A DNA stretch of 64,000 bases from Cellulosimicrobium protaetiae (GTDB lineage: Bacteria > Actinomycetota > Actinomycetes > Actinomycetales > Cellulomonadaceae): NCBI RefSeq assembly GCF_009708005.2, contig NZ_CP052757.1, forward strand, positions 1,922,001 through 1,986,000, given 5' to 3'. The translations under genes were made by a program, and so were the position numbers. A model generated the notes under the pieces. The model was given only the letters and a program-made list of their open reading frames with translations. It was not told the DNA's origin and ran no database searches. Shown here piece by piece: positions 21,825 through 53,565 of this stretch (positions within the stretch are counted from its first letter, which is position 1; every line of letters begins with the position of its first letter).

Positions 21825-24122
21825 ATGAAGTTCACCGACGGGTACTGGCAGGTCCGACCGGGGATGCACCCGCTCTACGCGGTCGAGGTCGACGACGTCC
21901 GCGCGGACGAGGCGGCCGGCACGCTCACCGTGTACGCGCCGACGGCGAAGATCCGCGGTCGCGGCGACACGCTCAACCGCCCGATGCTCACGACGACGTA
22001 CTCCTCGCCCGCGCCCGGCGTGATCCGCGTGCGCGTCGAGCACCACCAGGGCGCGGTGCGCCGCGGCCCGGCGTTCCAGGTGACCGGCGAGCCCGGGTTC
22101 CGGCCCGAGGTCGAGGTCCACGACGACGTCGCGGTCCTGCGGTCCAAGGACCTCGCCGTGCGCGTGCACCGGGGCGACCGGTGGCGCGTCGACTTCGAGG
22201 CGGACGGCGAGGTGCTGACGTCCTCGCTGCCCAAGTCGGTCGGGCACGTCACGGCCGACGACGGCCGCGCGTGGACGCACGAGCAGCTCGCGCTCGAGCC
22301 GGGCGAGCTCGTCTACGGGCTGGGGGAGCGGTTCGGCCCGTTCGTCAAGAACGGCCAGGTCGTCGACATCTGGAACGAGGACGGCGGCACGTCGAGCGAG
22401 CAGGCGTACAAGTCCGTCCCGCTCTACCTGACGACCAAGGGCTACGGCGTGTTCGTCGAGCACCCGGAGAAGGTCTCGTTCGAGGTCGCGTCCGAGGTGA
22501 ACACGCGCGTCCAGTTCTCCGTCGAGGGCCAGGCGCTCGAGTACCTGGTCATCCAGGGACCGACGCCCAAGGACGTGCTGCGCCGGTACACCGCGCTGAC
22601 CGGCCGCCCGGCGCGCGTGCCCGCGTGGTCGTTCGGGCTGTGGCTCACGACGTCGTTCACGACGAGCTACGACGAGCAGACGGTGAACGGGTTCATCGAC
22701 GGCATGGCCGAGCGCGACCTGCCGCTGTCGGTGTTCCACTTCGACTGCTTCTGGATGCGCGAGTACCAGTGGGTCGACTTCGAGTGGGACCCGCGCACGT
22801 TCCCCGACCCCGAGGGCATGCTGCGCCGCCTGCACGACCGCGGGCTCAAGGTGTGCCTCTGGATCAACCCGTACGTCGCGCAGCGCTCGCCGCTCTTCGC
22901 GGAGGCCGCGGAGCAGGGCTTCCTCGTCAAGCGCGAGGACGGGTCCGTGTGGCAGTGGGACCTGTGGCAGGCGGGCATGGCGCTGGTGGACTTCACCAAC
23001 CCCGACGCGACCGCGTGGTACGTGGGCAAGCTCGAGGGCCTGCTCGACCAGGGCGTCGACTGCTTCAAGACCGACTTCGGCGAGCGGATCCCGGTCGACG
23101 GCATCGCGTGGCACGACGGCTCGGACCCGCGCAAGATGCACAACTACTACGCCCAGCTCTACAACGAGGCGGTCTTCCGCCTGCTGGAGCGCAAGCGCGG
23201 CGAGGGCGACGCGGTGCTGTTCGCGCGGTCCGCGACGGCAGGCGGCCAGCAGTTCCCCGTGCACTGGGGCGGGGACTGCGACTCGACGTACGCGTCGATG
23301 GCCGAGTCGCTGCGCGGCGGCCTCTCGATGTCGATGTCCGGCTTCGGCTACTGGAGCCACGACATGGGCGGCTTCGAGGGCACGCCCGACCCGGGAGTGT
23401 TCAAGCGCTGGACGGCGTTCGGCCTGCTGTCGTCGCACTCGCGCCTCCACGGCTCGGGCTCGGTCCGTGTGCCGTGGGCGTTCGACGACGAGGCCGTCGA
23501 CGTCACGCGCAAGTTCACGCACCTCAAGCTGTCGCTCATGCCCTACCTCGGCCGCGTGGCCGAGGAGGCGCACACCGACGGCGTGCCGATGATGCGCCCG
23601 CTCGCGCTCGAGCTGCCGCACGACCGTGCGGGGTTCACCGCGGACACGCAGTACCTGCTGGGCGACGCGCTGCTCGTCGCGCCGGTCTTCCGTGCCGACG
23701 GCCGCGTCGAGTACTACGTGCCCGAGGGCACCTGGACGCGCCTCGTCCAACCCGACGACGGCCCCGCCCTGAGCGAGACCGTGACGGGTCCGCGCTGGGT
23801 CACCGAGACCCACGGGTTCAGCTCGCTCCCGGTGCTCGTGCGCCCGGGCACCGTCCTCCCGGTGGGCGCCCGCACCGACCGTCCCGACTACGACTGGGCC
23901 GACGGCGTCACGCTGCACGCGTTCGAGCTGCCCGAGGGGTACGACGAGCTCGTGGTCGTCCCGCCGGCGGACGGCGCGCCGGGGGCGACGTTCCGCGTGC
24001 GCCGGTCGGGCACGACGCTCACGGTCTCGTCCGACGACGCCGTGGCCGCCTGGTCCGTGCGGGCCGGCTCCGCGACGGCGGAGGCCCACGGCGCGACGAG
24101 CGTGACGATCGACCTCGGCTGA
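21825..24122 (+). CDS. GH31 glycosidase, probable alpha-xylosidase (YicI-like)
   Basis: A 765-aa cytoplasmic enzyme with no signal peptide, expected to release alpha-linked xylose from imported oligosaccharides. The nucleophile is Asp417 in KTDFGERIP, and the acid/base candidate is Asp484 in [17 protein letters not shown]. Both segments resemble YicI alpha-xylosidases more than alpha-glucosidases. An N-terminal beta-sandwich precedes the barrel. The ATG follows GAAGGAAG. The neighbouring GH1 beta-glucosidase fits dismantling of xyloglucan fragments such as isoprimeverose. The substrate is an inference. Confidence 0.88.
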
Positions 24123-24130
24123 GGACGTAT

Positions 24131-24178
24131 CCTGGGCGAGCACGCTATGGAAGCGCTCCCATGGCATGCTCGCCCAGG
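24131..24178. promoter_or_regulatory. 48-bp near-perfect palindrome over a CebR-type operator before the GH1 gene
   Basis: Outer arms CCTGGGCGAGCA (24131-24142) and TGCTCGCCCAGG (24167-24178) are exact complements. The centre holds TGGAAGCGCTCCCA (24148-24161), one mismatch pair from the CebR-type TGGGAGCGCTCCCA. Overall 21 of 24 base pairs match. It begins 9 bases after the GH31 stop, so it may act both as an RNA terminator and as a repressor site for the beta-glucosidase gene. Confidence 0.75.
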
Positions 24179-24258
24179 TACTCGTCGCACGCGCCGAGCA
24201 CCCCACCGACCACCCGTCGCGGACCGCGTCGTCCGACGACCGAGCAGCGAGGACCCCC

Positions 24259-25749
24259 GTGACCACCGACACCACCGCCCCCGACACCGTCGACACGCAG
24301 TCCGTGCCCGCGCCGTCGGGTCGCCGGACGTTCCCGACCGACTTCCTCTGGGGCTCGGCCACCGCGGCGTACCAGATCGAGGGCGCCGCCGCCGAGGGCG
24401 GCCGCACGCCGTCCATCTGGGACACGTACTCCCACACGCCGGGCCGCACCCTCAACGGGGACACGGGCGACGTGGCCGACGACCACTACCACCGGTGGCA
24501 GGAGGACGTGCGGCACATCGCCGACCTCGGCCTCGGCGCCTACCGGTTCTCGATCTCCTGGTCGCGCGTCCAGCCCGGCGGCACGGGCCCGCTCAACCCC
24601 GAGGGCGTCGCGTTCTACTCGCGCCTCGTCGACGCGCTGATCGAGAAGGGCGTCAAGCCCGTCGTCACGCTCTACCACTGGGACCTCCCGCAGGAGCTCG
24701 AGGACGCGGGCGGCTGGGCCAACCGAGACACCGCGTACGCGTTCGCCGAGTACGCCCGCCACATGGCGCGTGAGCTCGGCGACCGGATCGACACGTGGAC
24801 GACGCTCAACGAGCCCTGGTGCTCCGCGTACCTCGGCTACGGCTCCGGGGTGCACGCGCCCGGCCGTACCGAGCCCGCCGCGGCGCTCGCGGCTGTGCAC
24901 CACCTCAACCTCGCGCACGGGCTCGCCGTCCAGGCGATCCGCGACGAGCTCGGCGAGGACGCGAAGACGTCCGTCACGCTCAACCTCCACGTCATCCGGC
25001 CCGACGACCCGACGTCCGCGGGCGACCTGGACGCCGTGCGGAAGATCGACGCCCTCGCCAACCGGGCGTTCCTCGCCCCCATGCTCGACGGCGAGTACCC
25101 CGCGGACCTGCTCGCCGACACGGCGCACGTGAGCGACTGGTCGTTCGTGCGCGACGGCGACCTCGACACCGTGCGCCAGCCGCTGTCGATCCTCGGTGTC
25201 AACTACTACTCGACCGTGCGCGTGCGCCACTTCTCCGGCGAGGGCGAGCGCTCGGAGAACGACGGGCACGGCGCGTCGAAGCACAGCCCGTGGATCGGCG
25301 TCGACGACGTCGAGTTCGTCCAGCAGCCCGGCCCGTACACCGCGATGGGCTGGAACATCGAGCCCGCCGGCATGACCGAGCTGCTCGTCTCCGTGGCGAA
25401 GACGTACCCGCACCAGCCGATGATGGTCACCGAGAACGGCGCCGCGTTCGCCGACGAGGTCACGGTCGACGCCGACGGGTCCGCCCGCGTGCACGACGAC
25501 CGCCGCGTCGCGTACCTCCACGACCACGTCGACGCCGTGGGCGCCGCGATCGACGCCGGTGCCGACGTGCGCGGGTACTTCGCGTGGTCCCTGCTCGACA
25601 ACTTCGAGTGGGGCTACGGCTACGAGCGCCGCTTCGGGATCATCCGCGTCGACTACGACACGCTCGAGCGCACGTGGAAGGACTCCGCGCACTGGTACCG
25701 CCGCCTCGCGACCTCGAACGAGCTCCCGACGGTCGACGAGACCGCCTGA
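24259..25749 (+). CDS. GH1 beta-glucosidase
   Basis: Cytoplasmic retaining beta-glucosidase of family GH1, 496 aa. The acid/base is Glu185 in TLNEPW, and the nucleophile is Glu392 in VTENGAAF. The N-terminal [16 protein letters not shown] and late [15 protein letters not shown] are family signatures. The GTG at 24259 was chosen because it leaves a short linker, follows a GCGAGGAC ribosome-binding sequence and places the operator palindrome upstream. An earlier in-frame ATG at 24166 lies inside the palindrome. It probably acts on cello- or xyloglucan oligosaccharides imported by operon I. Confidence 0.94.
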
Positions 25750-25766
25750 GCCGTCCTGCCTCGACA

Positions 25767-25793
25767 GGCCCGCCCGGTACCCCCGGGCGGGCC
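25767..25793 (+). terminator. Terminator hairpin after the GH1 gene
   Basis: Arms GGCCCGCCCGG (25767-25777) and CCGGGCGGGCC (25783-25793) are exact complements with a 5-base loop, followed by TTCGT. It lies 17 bases after the stop. Confidence 0.8.
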
Positions 25794-25899
25794 TTCGTGC
25801 GCTCGTCGGGTGTGCGTCCGCGGGGTGGGGCTCGCGGGGGCTCCGCGGGTGGGGCTCCGTGGGGGCTCCGCCGGTGGAGCTCCGCGGCGTGCGTCCGCG

Positions 25900-26019
25900 G
25901 GTGGGGCTCCGCGGGCGGGGTCGCGGGTCTACCATCCGGCCGCTCGTGCCTCGCGGCCTCCCGCCAGACCCGCCACGACCCGCGACCCCGCCCGCTCCGC
26001 CCCACCCCGCTCGTCCGTC
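25900..26019 (+). repeat. Structured stem-loop element, copy 1
   Basis: A 47-nt core (25930-25976) is closed by a 30-bp outer stem, 25900-25929 with 25977-26006, interrupted only by a 3-base mismatch. Inside the core GGCCGC (25938-25943) pairs with GCGGCC (25953-25958) around a 9-base loop. Copy 2 (29683-29788) has the same core apart from one base, but its outer stem has a different sequence that is again self-complementary. Both copies are followed by CCCCGCTCGTCCGTC (26005-26019 here). A conserved core with a compensated variable stem suggests a structured RNA or a protein-bound hairpin. Confidence 0.85.
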
Positions 26020-26030
26020 GTCTCGCCACG

Positions 26031-26135
26031 CGAGGTAGAACCGTGGTCCGCCGAAGTAGAACGGTGGTCGCGCGAGGTAGAACCGTGGTCCGGCGAAGTA
26101 GAACCGTGGTTGCGCGGGGTAGAACCGTGGTTGGC
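26031..26135 (+). repeat. 21-bp tandem repeat array, locus A (5 units, one orientation)
   Basis: TAGAA boxes start at 26036, 26057, 26078, 26099 and 26120, exactly 21 bases apart. The unit core is GAGGTAGAACCGTGGT, with AA/GG alternation before the box. The array starts 11 bases after the conserved tail of the stem-loop element. It is followed by GGTGCCCGGC...CGTCGGGTG (from ~26140), which looks like a degenerate version of the core found at loci B and C. No inverted array follows, so this may be a half element. Confidence 0.9.
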
Positions 26136-26378
26136 CGAGAGGGTGCCCGGCTCCGCGTCGGGTGCGGCGCTGTTCGTCGTCACGCTCGTCCTCTCGAGGG
26201 CGGGCGTGACGTTCGTCGCAAGGTTCTGCGCGCCGGGCGCGACACGCCGAAGGAACGCGACACGCCGACGAGTTGGGTGTTCGTCGTGTCCGGATTGGGC
26301 CGGTTCGCCGGGCGTCGGCGCGGAGCCGCACGACGGCGGAGGCGGCCTCACGAGGCGGCCTCACCGGGTCTCACAGGG

Positions 26379-26479
26379 TGTGGACCGACGTCGTCCCCAC
26401 CCTGTGGACGATGCCTCGCCGTCCGCGAGAGGACGCCGTTCGTGGTGCCTCCGGGCGGTGGACGACGGGCTGTGGACGA
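26379..26479. promoter_or_regulatory. Three DnaA-box-like sites upstream of nrdHIEF
   Basis: TGTGGACCG (26379-26387), TGTGGACGA (26403-26411) and TGTGGACGA (26471-26479) match TGTGGACAA, the complement of TTGTCCACA, at 7, 8 and 8 of 9 positions. All are in the same orientation within 100 bases. Confidence 0.45.
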
Positions 26480-26556
26480 GTCCTCCGGAAGGGGTGTCAG
26501 AGGGTGGTGGGACCATGGATCCATGGCTCCTAGCACACCCCGATGGGTGAAGTTCG

Positions 26557-26606
26557 ACCACGACATCTAGTGCGGTGGCGCGGTGTCGACCACTAGGTAT
26601 AGTGGT
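26557..26606. promoter_or_regulatory. Paired NrdR-box candidates before nrdH
   Basis: ACCACTAGGTATAGTGGT (26589-26606) is nearly palindromic and close to the NrdR consensus (ACACTATATATAGTGT type). A weaker box with CACGACATCTAGTG (26559-26572) lies about 32 bases away centre to centre. Two boxes about three helical turns apart are the standard NrdR operator, at which the repressor senses dATP/ATP to control ribonucleotide reductase genes. Confidence 0.7.
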
Positions 26607-26740
26607 TGCACACCCAGGGGGCCGGAGGCCTTCTGGCGAATCACACAGACGTAGTTCCACCGGTGTCCTTCGAGGTCAGAGACGTTTCTCCCTCCCCGAG
26701 GACCGTCCCGGGCAGAGCGCGAGAGACGAGGAGTCACCCC

Positions 26741-26986
26741 ATGAGCGTCACGGTCTACAGCAAGCCGGCTTGCGTTCAGTGCGACGCGACGTACCGCGCT
26801 CTCGACAAGAAGGGCGTCGAGTACACCGTCGTGGACATCAGCCAGGACGCCGAGGCGCTCGAGCTCGTCCGCGGGCTCGGCTACCTGCAGGCGCCCGTGG
26901 TGGTCGCCGGGGACGAGCACTGGTCCGGGTTCCGTCCCGACCAGATCAACGCCCTCGCGCAGAAGGTCTCGCCGGTCGTCGCCTGA
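26741..26986 (+). CDS. nrdH: Glutaredoxin-like protein NrdH
   Basis: An 81-aa thioredoxin-fold electron donor for class Ib ribonucleotide reductase. The redox motif is CVQC (Cys11, Cys14), close to the CMQC/CVQC of known NrdH. The late WSGFRPDQI segment is the NrdH signature that sets it apart from glutaredoxins. The ATG follows GACGAGGAG. It is the first gene of the nrdH-nrdI-nrdE-nrdF set. Confidence 0.97.
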   Translation: MSVTVYSKPACVQCDATYRALDKKGVEYTVVDISQDAEALELVRGLGYLQAPVVVAGDEHWSGFRPDQINALAQKVSPVVA

Positions 26987-27065
26987 CCGGCCTCCCGGGG
27001 CGCCGTGAGGCGCCCCGACCACGTACGGAAGCAGGCGGAGCAGGGCAGGACGGAGGTGCGTCCCC

Positions 27066-27497
27066 GTGGGGTCGCTCGTGTACTTCTCCAGCGTCAGCGA
27101 GAACACGCACCGGTTCGTCCAGCGGCTCGACCTGCCGGCCCTCGGCATGGACGTGCAGCGCATCCCGCTGCGTCCGACCGAGGGCTTCCTGCGCGTCGAG
27201 GAGCCGTACGTGCTCATGGTCCCGACCTACGGGGGCGGCAACGAGGGCGGTGCCGTCCCGCGCCAGGTCGTGAAGTTCCTCAACGACGTGCACAACCGGT
27301 CGTTGATCCGCGGCGTCATCGCGGCGGGCAACACCAACTTCGGCGAGGCGTACTGCATCGCCGGTGACATCATCTCCGCGAAGTGCCAGGTGCCCTACCT
27401 GTACGCCTTCGAACTCCTGGGAACAGCCGAGGACGCCGCGCGCGTCCGCGACGGATTGGGACGATTTTGGCAACGACAGTCACGGATTCCGGCGTGA
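27066..27497 (+). CDS. nrdI: Flavodoxin-like NrdI
   Basis: FMN protein that supplies the oxidant for assembling the Mn2-tyrosyl radical cofactor of NrdF. The 143-aa product has [19 protein letters not shown] at the FMN phosphate site, then [16 protein letters not shown] and [13 protein letters not shown], all typical of NrdI. The GTG start lies 10 bases after GGAGGT. The stop overlaps the preferred nrdE start (GTGA, 27494-27497). Confidence 0.96.
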
Positions 27498-29653
27498 GCG
27501 TGGCAGGCGGTGGCACGGTCACCGAGGTGCCGCTGGCGAGCACCCAGCTCGACTTCCACGCGCTCAACGCGATGCTGAACCTCTACGGCCCGAACGGCGA
27601 GATCCAGTTCGACAAGGACCGCGAGGCCGCGCGCGCGTACTTCCTGCAGCACGTCAACCAGAACACGGTGTTCTTCCACGACCTGCAGGAGAAGCTCGAC
27701 TACCTCGTCGAGAACAAGTACTACGACCCGGCCGTGCTGGCGAAGTACGACCGCGCGTTCGTCAAGTCGCTGTTCGAGTTCGCGTACGCCAAGAAGTTCC
27801 GCTTCGAGACGTTCCTCGGCGCGTTCAAGTACTACACGTCGTACACGCTCAAGACGTTCGACGGGAAGCGGTACCTGGAGCGCTTCGAGGACCGCGTGTG
27901 CATGGTCGCGCTCGGCCTCGCGGACGGGAACGAGCAGGCCGCGCTCGACATCGTCGAGGAGGTCATCTCGGGCCGCTTCCAGCCCGCGACCCCGACGTTC
28001 CTCAACGTCGGCAAGGCGCAGCGCGGCGAGCCCGTGTCATGCTTCCTGCTGCGCATCGAGGACAACATGGAGTCCATCGCGCGCGGCATCAACTCCGCGC
28101 TGCAGCTCTCCAAGCGCGGCGGCGGCGTCGCCCTGCTCCTGTCGAACATCCGCGAGCACGGCGCGCCGATCAAGCACATCGAGAACCAGTCGTCGGGCGT
28201 CATCCCCGTGATGAAGCTGCTCGAGGACTCGTTCTCCTACGCGAACCAGCTCGGCGCGCGCCAGGGTGCCGGCGCCGTGTACCTGCACGCGCACCACCCG
28301 GACATCCTGCGGTTCCTCGACACCAAGCGCGAGAACGCGGACGAGAAGATCCGCATCAAGACGCTCTCGCTGGGCGTCGTGATCCCGGACATCACGTTCG
28401 AGCTCGCCAAGAAGAACGAGGACATGTACCTCTTCTCGCCGTACGACGTCGAGCGCGTCTACGGCAAGCCGTTCGCCGACATCTCGGTCACCGAGAAGTA
28501 CGACGAGATGGTCGACGACTCGCGCATCCGCAAGACGAAGATCAAGGCGCGCGACTTCTTCCAGACCATCGCCGAGCTCCAGTTCGAGTCGGGCTACCCG
28601 TACATCATGTTCGAGGACACGGTGAACAAGGCGAACCCGATCAAGGGCCGCATCACCCACTCGAACCTGTGCTCGGAGATCCTGCAGGTCTCGACGCCGT
28701 CGACGTTCAACGAGGACCTCTCGTACGACCACGTCGGCCGCGACATCTCCTGCAACCTCGGCTCGCTGAACATCGCCAAGACGATGGACTCGCCGGACTT
28801 CGCCAAGACGATCGACACCGCGATCCGCGCGCTCACCGCGGTCTCGGACCAGACGAGCATCGAGTCGGTCCCGTCGATCAAGCGGGCGAACGAGGCGGGC
28901 CACGCGATCGGCCTCGGCCAGATGAACCTTCACGGCTACCTCGCGCGCGAGCGGATCCACTACGGGTCCACCGAGGGCGTCGACTTCACGAACATCTACT
29001 TCTACACGGTCGCCTACCACGCGATCGCGGCGTCGAACCGCCTCGCGATCGAGCGCGGGCGCGCGTTCGGCGGCTTCGAGGACTCGAAGTACGCGTCGGG
29101 GGAGTACTTCGACAAGTACACCGACCAGGTGTGGGAGCCCGAGACGGAGCGCGTGCGCCAGCTCTTCGCCGACGCCGGCGTGCACGTGCCGACCCAGGAC
29201 GACTGGAAGGCCCTCAAGGCCTCGGTCATGGAGCACGGGATCTACAACCAGAACCTCCAGGCCGTCCCGCCGACGGGCTCGATCTCCTACATCAACAACT
29301 CGACGTCCTCCATCCACCCGGTGCCGTCGAAGATCGAGATCCGCAAGGAGGGCAAGATCGGGCGCGTCTACTACCCGGCGCCCTACCTGACGAACGACAA
29401 CCTCGAGTACTACGAGGACGCGTACGAGATCGGCTACGAGAAGATCATCGACACGTACGCCGCCGCGACGCAGCACGTCGACCAGGGCCTGAGCCTCACG
29501 CTGTTCTTCAAGGACACGGTCACGACGCGCGACGTCAACCGCGCGCAGATCTACGCGTGGCGCAAGGGCATCAAGACGCTCTACTACATCCGCCTCCGCC
29601 AGATGGCCCTGGAGGGCACGGAGGTCGAGGGCTGCGTCTCGTGCATGCTCTAG
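27494..29653 (+). CDS. nrdE: Class Ib ribonucleotide reductase alpha subunit NrdE
   Basis: Catalytic large subunit that reduces ribonucleoside diphosphates to deoxyribonucleotides. From the GTG at 27494 the product has 719 aa, normal for NrdE, and it lacks the N-terminal ATP-cone found in class Ia. Segments include [30 protein letters not shown] and the C-terminal EGCVSCML with the cysteine pair reduced by NrdH. The frame stays open upstream to 27383 but overlaps nrdI. GTG 27494 is chosen for the GTGA overlap, and a TTG near 27467 is an alternative. Confidence 0.95.
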
Positions 29654-30865
<1,212 letters not shown>

Positions 30866-30889
30866 GCCCCACGCACTCCTGACAGACCT

Positions 30890-30921
30890 CGAACGGCCGT
30901 CCCCCCGGGGGCGGCCGTTCG
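30890..30921. terminator. Bidirectional terminator between nrdF and the convergent phosphoribosyltransferase gene
   Basis: CGAACGGCCG (30890-30899) pairs with CGGCCGTTCG (30912-30921), with an inner C/G run that can extend the stem. It lies between two convergent genes. Confidence 0.85.
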
Positions 30922-30932
30922 TCGTCGGAGCG

Positions 30933-31493
30933 TCAGTCCTTCGGGCGGGGCTGCGCGCCCGCGACGGGCGGGTCGGCCGACCACGGGAACGTGATCCAGA
31001 GGTCGGTGTCCCTCCACGAGTAGTCCGGCTGGATGATCGTGCGGGGCTTGGTGTAGAGCACCGCGGACCGCGCCTCGGCGCCGTGGGTGCTCAGCATCTC
31101 CATGACCAGGGCGAGGGTCCGGCCCGAGTCGGCGACGTCGTCGACCACGAGCACGTGCGCGCCCGGGAGGTCGGACGTGTCCATGAGCGGCGGGAGCACG
31201 CGCGGGTCGGTGAGGGTCTGGCCGATGTCGGTGTAGAACTCGACGTTGAGCGTCCCGACGCCCTTGGTCCCGAGCGCGTACGCGACCGCACCGCCGGGCA
31301 GGAGCCCGCCGCGCGCGACGGCGACGACGACCTCGGGCCGGAACCCGCTCGCGACGACCTGCTCGGCGAGCTCGCGCGCGGCGACGCCGAACGTCTCCCA
31401 CGTGAGCACCTCGCGCTCGGGCGGGACGGCGGGGCCCGGCGCTGCGCCGTCGTCGGGCACGGAGGAGACCGGGGGCGTGGAGGCGTCCGTCAT
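30933..31493 (-). CDS. Phosphoribosyltransferase-family protein
   Basis: A 186-aa type I PRTase fold. The PRPP-binding loop is VLVVDDVADSGRTLALV. An N-terminal Pro/Ala-rich stretch of about 30 residues precedes it, and the late SWRDTDLWITFPWS resembles the hood region of xanthine/hypoxanthine-type enzymes. It is probably a purine-salvage enzyme, but the base specificity cannot be read. The ATG at 31493 was chosen over an upstream in-frame start (31559) that would extend into GC-rich non-conserved sequence. Confidence 0.83.
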   Translation of the reverse strand: MTDASTPPVSSVPDDGAAPGPAVPPEREVLTWETFGVAARELAEQVVASGFRPEVVVAVARGGLLPGGAVAYALGTKGVGTLNVEFYTDIGQTLTDPRVLPPLMDTSDLPGAHVLVVDDVADSGRTLALVMEMLSTHGAEARSAVLYTKPRTIIQPDYSWRDTDLWITFPWSADPPVAGAQPRPKD

Positions 31494-31588
31494 GGATCGA
31501 GCGTACGTCGCGCGACGCTCACCCCTCGCCCGTCCGGGTCCCGAGCTCCCGGGACCCACGGCCCGCGGTCGCGACGCGCACCCGACGC

Positions 31589-31627
31589 GACGAGGGCCGC
31601 ACCCCGTGGGGGTGCGGCCCTCGTCGG
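31589..31627 (-). terminator. Strong terminator hairpin after the FKBP lipoprotein gene
   Basis: Arms 31589-31606 and 31610-31627 are exact 18-bp complements (CGACGAGGGCCGCACCCC and its partner) with a 3-base loop. It lies 12 bases beyond the stop of the minus-strand FKBP gene. Confidence 0.85.
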
Positions 31628-31639
31628 GTCAGGCAGGAC

Positions 31640-32611
31640 TCACTGCGCGTCGAGGATGTCCACGACGAAGACGAGCGGCGAGTCGGCCGGGATCGAGCCG
31701 CTGCCCTGCGCGCCGTAGCCCAGCTCCGAGGGGATGACGAGCAGCACCTGGCTGCCGACGGTCTGCCCGGCGAGGCCCTGCGTCCAGCCCGGGATCACCT
31801 GCTGGAGCGAGAAGCTCGTGGGGGCGCCGCGGTCCCAGGACGAGTCGAAGACCGTGCCGTCGAGCAGCATGCCCGTGTAGTGGGCGGTGACCGTCTGGTC
31901 CTCGGTGACGACGGGGCCGTCGCCCTTGATGAGCGTCTGCGCGACGAGCTCGGCCGGGGCCTCGTAGCCCTCGGGGATCTCGATGGTCGGCTTGCCGGTG
32001 TCGTCGAGCGTCACGGTCGGCAGGCCCTCGGCGGGCGTGACGGCCTCTCCCTCGGCACGCGAGGGGATGGTCTTCACCTCGGTGACCTCGGCGACGGTCA
32101 GGTAGGTGACCGGCTCACCGGTCGTCTGGTCCGTCGTCGGGTTGGCGAACAGGAAGCGGGTACCGACCTTCTTGCCCACGACGACGTCGAGCAGCTGCGG
32201 GAAGAGCGAGTCGTCGATGATCAGCTGCTCGGGCGACTCGGTCTCCCACGTCGAGCCGAGCTTGGAGCCGTCCGCGCCGGAGAACGCCGCGGTGTGCATC
32301 GTGATCTGCTGACCCTTGGCGATCTCCTCGCCCTCGCCGTCGTTCAGCGAGATGGCCGCAGCGCCCGAGACCTCGAACGGCTGCTCGAACTCGAGGCTGG
32401 GCTCGGCACCCGGGTCTCCGGTGACGGTGATGCTCTCGAGCGCCGCGACGTCCTCCGGCGACGACGTCGCGGCGTCGCTCGCGCCGTCGGTCGCGGACGG
32501 GCTCGACGACGTCTCGTCGCCGGAGCCGCCGCCCTCCGAGGCGCAGCCGGAGAGGACGAGGGCGGCGCCCAGGGTGAGCGCGGCGACGCCGCGCAGGGTG
32601 CGGTGCTTCAC
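31640..32611 (-). CDS. FKBP-type peptidyl-prolyl isomerase lipoprotein
   Basis: Surface-anchored proline isomerase, 323 aa from a GTG start with a GAAGGA ribosome-binding sequence. The signal peptide ends at the lipidated Cys23 (LVLSGC), followed by a Ser/Thr/Asp-rich linker. Residues ~75-190 resemble a degenerate FKBP domain (KGQQITMHTAAFSGADG...). The C-terminal ~100 residues are a canonical FKBP domain (VTAHYTGMLLDGTVFDSSWDRG, VIPGWTQGL, LGYGAQGSGSIPADSPLVFVVDIL). It probably folds secreted proteins at the cell surface. Confidence 0.93.
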   Translation of the reverse strand: MKHRTLRGVAALTLGAALVLSGCASEGGGSGDETSSSPSATDGASDAATSSPEDVAALESITVTGDPGAEPSLEFEQPFEVSGAAAISLNDGEGEEIAKGQQITMHTAAFSGADGSKLGSTWETESPEQLIIDDSLFPQLLDVVVGKKVGTRFLFANPTTDQTTGEPVTYLTVAEVTEVKTIPSRAEGEAVTPAEGLPTVTLDDTGKPTIEIPEGYEAPAELVAQTLIKGDGPVVTEDQTVTAHYTGMLLDGTVFDSSWDRGAPTSFSLQQVIPGWTQGLAGQTVGSQVLLVIPSELGYGAQGSGSIPADSPLVFVVDILDAQ

Positions 32612-53159: not shown

Positions 53160-53565
53160 CTGCAGTAGAACCCCGGTCGCGCGGAGCAGAACCCTGGTCG
53201 CGCGGAGCAGAACCCTGGTCGCGCGAGGTAGAACCCAGGTCGCGCGAAGTAGAACCGTGGTTGCGCGAGGTAGAACCGTGGTCGCGCGAAGTTGAACGTC
53301 GTCGTGCCCGACGGCGATCGGTCGCCGGCACTCGTGGGGTCGCCGCCCGAGGTGGTCGAGCCAGCGAAGGGCGGATGGTCGGCCAGAGCGGCGAGGCGCT
53401 GGGGCCGACGAAGTCACCCCGACCACCCAGGCGGACCGCGCGCCGTCGGGCACGAAGCGACCAGGGCTCTACCTCGCGCGACCACGGTTCTACCTCGCGC
53501 GACCACGGTTGTACCTCGGCAGACCGGGGTTCTACCTCAGGAGACCGGGGTTCTCCTTCGGCGGA
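53160..53565. repeat. 21-bp repeat element, locus C: 7 forward and 5 inverted units around a core
   Basis: Forward boxes start at 53166, 53187, 53208, 53229, 53250, 53271 and 53292, all exactly 21 bases apart. Inverted boxes end at 53471, 53492, 53513, 53534 and 53555, again 21 apart. The 148-bp core between them starts TGCCCGACG (53305-53313) and ends CGTCGGGCA (53444-53452), as at locus B, and the sequence next to each end is also shared with B. It fills most of the 584-base gap between the GH26-esterase promoter and the lacI stop, ending about 10 bases from that stop codon. Confidence 0.92.

What the first reader, a model, noticed from the sequence alone, without database searches (positions are those of the whole stretch)
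25900..26019. Repeated element with a conserved core and a compensated, sequence-variable outer stem
Two copies (25900-26019 and 29683-29788) have cores of 47 nt differing at one base, including an inner hairpin GGCCGC/GCGGCC, plus a shared 15-base tail CCCCGCTCGTCCGTC. The outer stems (30 bp with a 3-base mismatch, and 19 bp perfect) have different sequences yet each is self-complementary. Conserved loop, nested helix and covarying stem are the pattern of a structured RNA or of a hairpin recognised by shape. The conserved tail outside the stem argues against a simple insertion into existing terminator loops. I do not recognise the family.
Basis: partly seen in the sequence, partly recalled or inferred. 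Interest (0 to 1): 0.85.

Follow-up and report, generated by a model that had tools for sequence, protein, structure and literature searches.

The report
Dispersed hairpin repeat at gene ends
A short DNA hairpin with a nearly fixed centre and freely changing but still matching arms is scattered in a dozen to several dozen copies through each Cellulosimicrobium-type genome examined, mostly just behind genes, where it probably helps end or protect their messages.

Summary
The two window copies belong to a dispersed family: 58 model matches in this genome, 12-72 in each of 17 same-genus genomes (names point to Cellulosimicrobium). Luteimicrobium (13-41) and one unnamed genus (9-10) also carry it; most of the family does not.

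Anatomy: variable arm, TCTWCCATCC, variable inner stem with loop TCGTNCCTC, CTCCCGCCAGRCCCRCCACGA, complementary arm. Arms and inner stem covary far above shuffled and slid controls, also among orthologous copies at one locus (3' end of nrdE, four genera).

Copies sit at gene 3' ends, rarely between divergent genes (5 of 292). Sense copies cluster about 41 bp after the stop codon, and all 13 close pairs face each other. In 9 of 14 element-free orthologous sites an unrelated strong hairpin stands there instead. Some copies lie in frame in protein linkers.

No Rfam match near the copies, no Y1 transposase in the genus, no phage, plasmid or viral-contig match.

Best reading: a mobile palindromic repeat whose sense copies act as terminator or mRNA 3'-end hairpins, with a core recognised by an unknown factor. 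Function, mover and RNA-versus-DNA action are inferred. Template-switch copying could make part of the covariation.

The parts
25899..25927 (+). copy 1, left arm: 9 bp, 3-base mismatch (25908-25910), 17 bp
   Evidence: pairing with 25979-26007
25928..25978 (+). copy 1, core: TCTACCATCC (25928-25937), inner stem GGCCGC (25938-25943), loop TCGTGCCTC (25944-25952), GCGGCC (25953-25958), TCCCGCCAGACCCGCCACGA (25959-25978); first TC pairs with last GA
25979..26007 (+). copy 1, right arm, complementary to the left arm
26005..26019 (+). copy 1, C/T-rich tail CCCCGCTCGTCCGTC
29683..29699 (+). copy 2, left arm, 17 bp, 29 bp behind the nrdE stop codon
29700..29750 (+). copy 2, core; differs from copy 1 at one base
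29751..29767 (+). copy 2, right arm
29774..29788 (+). copy 2, tail CCCCGCTCGTCCGTC
27500..29653 (+). nrdE (ribonucleotide reductase large chain), upstream of copy 2; start by home-made gene finder
   Evidence: Pfam PF02867, PF00317, PF08343 on 27383-29653
29885..30865 (+). nrdF (ribonucleotide reductase small chain), downstream of copy 2
   Evidence: Pfam PF00268 on 29687-30865
24166..25749 (+). glycosyl hydrolase family 1 gene, upstream of copy 1
   Evidence: Pfam PF00232
25766..25794 (+). ordinary 12-bp hairpin behind the GH1 gene; copy 1 lies beyond it

Best explanation
It is a dispersed, mobile palindromic repeat of about 90-110 bp, widespread in one genus and shared with some neighbours, made of a nearly invariant core held in a long hairpin whose arms may have almost any sequence as long as they pair. 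Most copies lie directly behind genes with a fixed strand towards the gene; there the hairpin most likely ends transcription or blocks 3'-to-5' decay of the upstream message (between nrdE and nrdF, as a leaky terminator or stabiliser inside the operon). The invariant unpaired segments are most likely the recognition site of a factor not yet identified (needed for spreading, or an RNA-binding or RNA-processing protein). Shown: anatomy, copy number, covariation, 3'-end and strand bias, vertical persistence at two loci, spread of whole units (shared arms in a burst, opposite orientations in one gene). Inferred: terminator/stabiliser role, the factor, and how the arms stay complementary (selection, template-switch copying of one arm from the other, or both).
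For: Copies: 58 in own genome, all 17 genus genomes. Covariation: 24 of 54 own-genome copies chosen for different arms or inner stems (25 of 27 pairs change on both sides, score 0.713 against 0.145 shuffled and at most 0.146 slid); orthologous copies at nrdE, 8 sequences and 13 sequences from four genera (score 0.429 against at most 0.124 slid), and at ilvC, 4 sequences. Gene context of 292 copies: divergent (-+) 5; non-burst copies ++ 75, -- 38, +- 76; taking one copy per arm cluster, ++ 27, -- 10, divergent 0 of 72, P = 0.008. Sense copies in ++ context lie a median 41 bp behind the stop, 58 of 75 within 60 bp; antisense copies (--) a median 104 bp, 5 of 38 within 60 bp. 13 of 13 pairs closer than 700 bp point at each other (several are orthologues). 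9 of 14 element-free orthologous regions fold into an unrelated strong hairpin, z -2.7 to -7.9. Vertical: nrdE 3' end in five genera counting two diverged hairpins, ilvC 3' end in Cellulosimicrobium and Luteimicrobium. Mobility: 33 of 54 own-genome copies share the GCCGCG-ending arm; ligD linker with sense copies in three loci and antisense in three.
Against: No transcription data. No T-run typical of intrinsic terminators. 39 of 236 non-burst copies fall inside predicted ORFs, five checked lie in frame between Pfam domains, where termination would be harmful. Antisense copies exist. In 5 of 14 folded element-free regions no strong hairpin was found. A-C mismatches (83) outnumber G-U (34) in the arms on the gene-sense strand, the opposite of what selection on a sense RNA helix predicts, while flanks show more C/T than A/G differences. 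No mobilising enzyme was found; only the Y1 family was searched. The gene finder was home-made and not benchmarked beyond the window genes.
Confidence: 0.6

Rival explanations
1. A non-autonomous selfish DNA element: the hairpin is the substrate of an unknown single-strand or structure-specific transposase, the 3'-end location reflects tolerance, and termination is a side effect.
For: Burst with shared arms, copies in both orientations in the ligD linker, in-frame copies in linkers of five checked proteins, pairing kept also inside ORFs (536 of 576 arm cells Watson-Crick).
Against: Element kept at nrdE and ilvC 3' ends over genera; tight spacing to the stop codon only for sense copies; no Y1 transposase in the genus; no copies in phage, plasmid or viral collections.
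Confidence: 0.25
2. The covariation is mainly mutational: polymerase template switching inside a long inverted repeat keeps copying one arm onto the other, so arms drift together without selection for pairing; only the core is selected.
For: Compensated changes are almost purely Watson-Crick; such homogenisation of arms is described (PMC8604942, abstract and passages seen); pairing is as good in antisense and in-ORF copies. In 37 orthologous comparisons, 56 changed positions: 15 compensated on both sides, 39 one-sided, 2 other (pairs overlap, a few are shifts by an indel).
Against: The inner stem, with a 9-nt loop, covaries as well; the spacer orientation is not scrambled (sense bias), although template switching also inverts spacers; one-sided changes do persist between close relatives.
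Confidence: 0.3
3. The outer arms are terminator hairpins that were there before, and a bare core was inserted into their loops.
For: Position of terminators; at ilvC an element-free allele (L412) holds the outer 12 bp of the arms seen in a filled allele (L200), 9 of 14 empty sites hold hairpins.
Against: Burst copies share arms and further flanking sequence; empty and filled sites otherwise have unrelated stems; the two empty ilvC alleles read more simply as deletions between 3-bp repeats (GTC; CGA), as the site is filled also in Luteimicrobium.
Confidence: 0.07
4. A small regulatory RNA or riboswitch-like element transcribed from the opposite strand.
For: On the minus strand the unpaired segments are purine-rich and the commoner one-sided changes would be G-U pairs.
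Against: Dozens of copies behind unrelated genes, antisense to the gene they follow; no Rfam match.
Confidence: 0.08

Closest known systems
REP elements (repetitive extragenic palindromes) with RAYT/TnpA-REP
   Same: Short palindromic repeats in many copies at gene ends, often in facing pairs; a role in termination or mRNA stability has been proposed (PMC3733652, abstract in listing and passages seen).
   Different: REPs are 20-40 bp with a GTAG or CGTC tag and a fairly fixed stem; here 90-110 bp, fixed core, variable arms, and no Y1 transposase in 17 of 17 genus genomes.
Rickettsia palindromic elements (RPE)
   Same: Palindromic repeats of about 150 bp that insert in frame in coding genes (review PMC10969869, passages seen).
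   Different: Most copies here are behind genes, with strand bias; sequence relation to RPEs was not tested.
Prokaryotic MITEs
   Same: Size, hairpin, high copy number, bursts (PMC10969869, passages).
   Different: MITEs keep their terminal inverted repeats; here the terminal arms are the variable part and the interior is fixed.
Intrinsic (Rho-independent) terminators
   Same: Strong GC hairpin shortly behind the stop codon.
   Different: Long conserved core of 43-50 nt inside, no T-run, found inside ORFs too.
Rfam structured RNA families
   Same: Nested covarying helices around invariant unpaired segments.
   Different: No family matches around either window copy, even at permissive E-value.

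Membership tests
REP/RAYT | Y1 transposase (RAYT/TnpA-REP, PF01797) in the genome | tested here: not met
   0 of 17 genus genomes; 2 of 59 genomes in all, both outside the family
REP/RAYT | GTAG/CGTC-type tag at the foot of the palindrome | tested here: not met
   Alignment A1 shows no invariant tetranucleotide at the foot of the outer stem; GTAG occurs only inside the core on the minus strand. The foot of the inner stem was not considered further
MITE | terminal inverted repeats conserved between copies | tested here: not met
   78 arm clusters among 308 copies; a burst cluster of 69 shares arms
MITE | target-site duplication | tested here: inconclusive
   Burst ends lie in repeated flanks; no fresh clean insertion was found among 57 orthologous comparisons
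Rickettsia palindromic element | in-frame insertion in coding genes | tested here: met
   Five of five checked ORFs have Pfam domains on both sides in one frame; 34 other in-ORF copies were not checked
Rickettsia palindromic element | sequence homology with RPE families | not tested
   no RPE sequences were compared
Intrinsic terminator | GC-rich hairpin just behind the stop codon | tested here: met
   58 of 75 sense copies within 60 bp
Intrinsic terminator | run of T directly behind the hairpin | tested here: not met
   T is 15-20% at 20-40 nt past the core against 12-16% further on
Intrinsic terminator | terminates transcription | not testable with these tools
   needs RNA-seq or reporter
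Rfam RNA families | match to a covariance model | tested here: not met
   window 24000-32000, E up to 5: two matches, neither at the copies

The most novel reading that the evidence does not exclude
A 'portable 3'-end element': a cis-acting hairpin that is old at the ends of a few operons such as nrd and ilvC escaped and multiplied as a mobile terminator/stabiliser, re-equipping gene ends genome-wide. A genus-specific factor reads the invariant core, while the arms are continually rewritten by fold-back copying, so that covariation here records a DNA copying process as well as a selected structure.
Probability: 0.25. Interest if true: 0.85.

Novelty: new variant of a known kind. Interest (0 to 1): 0.62.

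Why it matters
If right, it is a repeat family turned inside out compared with usual MITEs: the interior is fixed and the inverted repeats vary but stay paired. It would offer a natural set of hundreds of compensated stems to separate selection on structure from template-switch homogenisation, a warning for covariation-based discovery of structured RNAs, and a case of a mobile element supplying gene ends. In the window it sits between nrdE and nrdF, so it may set the ratio of the two ribonucleotide reductase subunits.

Tried and rejected
Structured RNA of a known family: rejected for lack of any Rfam match. REP/RAYT: rejected, no Y1 transposase. Phage or plasmid cargo: no match (viral contigs by one exact pattern, phages and plasmids by blastn of 56 nt at E up to 0.01). 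Insertion into ready-made terminator loops: tested on element-free sites, not supported. Core inversion at ligD by template switching: considered, since sense and antisense copies share inner stem and proximal arm, but the arms of the antisense copies resemble a copy elsewhere (L036), so independent insertion is as likely. Mismatch repair by NucS as the cause of the A-C excess (passages of PMC8228993): G-G and C-C mismatches are about equal (25 and 24), which it would not predict; left open. An nrd origin as sole home: in the five genomes with exactly one model match, it is behind nrdE in G026 and behind nrdF in G091, but elsewhere in G076, G047 and G054; G076 has a diverged hairpin at nrdE that the model did not list. 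Papers: searches gave no description of this repeat; these cover only open-licence full texts.

Full report
What is there. A search of the own genome with copy 1 gave 42 matches, two of them its own arms on the other strand; a core pattern gave 49 against 0 for the reversed pattern; a covariance model built from 24 own-genome copies (R1; 25 different ones were listed and one with an internal insertion, L040, was left out) gave 58. From fetched loci 54 own-genome copies were read in full.

Anatomy. Outer arms of about 17-30 bp, then TCTACCATCC, an inner stem of about 4-7 bp, loop TCGTNCCTC, then TCCCGCCAGRCCCRCCACGA and the other arm. The first two and last two core bases pair, and the outermost of these pairs varies as well (T-A, C-G and G-C forms). 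In alignment A1 95.9% of cells pair, 25 of 27 pairs change on both sides, and no shuffle of 500 reaches the observed covariation score; sliding the partners gives 0.05-0.15 against 0.713. Predicted folds of four copies on the plus strand and two on the minus strand are far more stable than shuffles, z -6.5 to -9.7; the minimum-energy fold keeps the inner stem as drawn in the plus strand of copy 1 and in L069, but not in the other four cases.

Distribution. With R1, 22 of 59 genomes match: 17 of 17 in the genus (12-72 copies), 3 of 20 others in the family, 2 of 22 others in the order. With more candidates scored one genus genome gave 85. A later search of nine chosen family members gave 9, 10 and 9 copies in genus g44, 13 and 41 in g10, and 1, 1, 2 and 1 in G076, G091, G034 and G026. 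Contig lengths identify G015 with C. marinum, G012 with Cellulosimicrobium sp. Marseille-Q4280, G013 with C. terreum and G091 with S. gelidistatuariae; G025 shares the sequence of L. xylanilyticum; this is inference.

Collected copies. From all loci held at that time 385 unique candidates were extracted; 308 have well-paired arms and fall into 78 arm clusters, the largest (69) being a burst with arm GGTGGGTGGTGGTGCCGCG. Over unique arm pairs 3456 of 3664 cells are Watson-Crick, 34 G-U, 83 A-C, 91 other.

Gene context. A codon-usage gene finder of my own (trained on window genes) was run on 292 copies with at least 500 bp on each side. Non-burst: ++ 75, +- 76, -- 38, -+ 3, inside an ORF 39, incomplete 5; burst: +- 26, -- 13, ++ 10, -+ 2, incomplete 5. 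Plus is the strand used here. Sense copies keep close to the stop codon, antisense copies do not. Thirteen pairs closer than 700 bp all point at each other, as if each gene of a convergent pair had its own; several of these pairs are orthologues of one another. One copy per arm cluster gives ++ 27 against -- 10. Copies from related genomes are not independent, so the P values are guides.

Inside genes. Five in-ORF copies were checked: LigD, a RecB-like RNase H/AAA protein, a biotin carboxylase, a UvrD/PcrA helicase and an HrpA-like helicase all have Pfam domains on both sides in the same frame, with the element in between. In the ligD linker three loci hold a sense copy and three an antisense copy.

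History of the window copy. The nrdE-nrdF gap of 16 genus genomes was located. Six hold the element with three different arm types; eight have none; G012 has a GIY-YIG-like reading frame there instead; G002 has a gap of similar size that was not read. In a family-wide search 56 of 61 genomes matched the nrdE end; 50 of these were fetched and 47 read at the right place. Eleven hold the element or a clearly related hairpin: two of four genus genomes, three of three of g10, one of one of g11, two of three of g19 (a diverged form) and three of three of g44; in the third g19 genome the copy is behind nrdF. Thirteen of these orthologous sequences, without the two diverged g19 forms, covary at 14 of 26 pairs, 0 of 500 shuffles reaching the score. 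The ilvC end (Pfam KARI) tells the same story between Cellulosimicrobium and Luteimicrobium. So arms change with compensation while the element stays in place.

Element-free sites. Twenty own-genome sites were traced in up to three relatives (57 comparisons); 15 hold the element and 42 do not. Of element-free regions at seven non-burst sites, 14 were folded: nine hold a strong unrelated hairpin, five do not. This exchange of one hairpin for another is the best evidence here for a 3'-end function.

How it stays paired. Among 37 orthologous comparisons 56 of 666 positions differ: 15 compensated, 39 one-sided, 2 other. Chance would give hardly any compensated ones, so either selection or copying of one arm from the other is at work. 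Template switching is known to even out inverted-repeat arms and also to invert spacers (PMC8604942, abstract and passages). The lack of G-U pairs and the good pairing inside ORFs speak for a DNA process; the covarying inner stem, the fixed core and the strand bias speak for selection. Both may be true.

Known or not. No Rfam family, not REP (no Y1 enzyme), not a MITE by its arms. The search listings gave no paper on it. The stabilising role of a REP between malE and malF in E. coli, which I take as the model for nrdE-nrdF, is recalled and comes from no call.

Noticed in passing
window 26032-26130, 53246-53500: A 21-bp unit (GAGGTAGAACCSTGGTC...) in short tandem arrays, often two arrays facing each other behind genes; 99 exact 17-mers in the genome against 0 for the reversed control. 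Burst copies of the hairpin element lie beside such arrays.
   Followed up: partly
L410, L417, L428, L435, L247, L363: A second hairpin family, CGARCACGAC...GTCGTGYTCG, with a variable but paired middle, occupying the same 3'-end sites in relatives.
   Followed up: partly
L456 and right flanks of several burst copies: A third hairpin-like repeat, GAGCAGGTGGT...ACCACCTGCTC.
   Followed up: no
L122, L497, L507 (between nrdE and nrdF): A GIY-YIG-like reading frame behind nrdE in G012, G091 and G072; Pfam PF01541 matches the last two only below its cut-off, L122 was judged by eye.
   Followed up: partly
L195:3946-4092: Three tandem 63-bp partial copies of the element next to a run of N in C. marinum contig 7.
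   Followed up: no
arms of all copies: A-C mismatches outnumber G-U 83 to 34 on the gene-sense strand, against the trend of the flanks; unexplained.
   Followed up: partly
window 31581-31631: Sub-threshold Rfam match to a microRNA family is an ordinary 18-bp hairpin between two genes.
   Followed up: no
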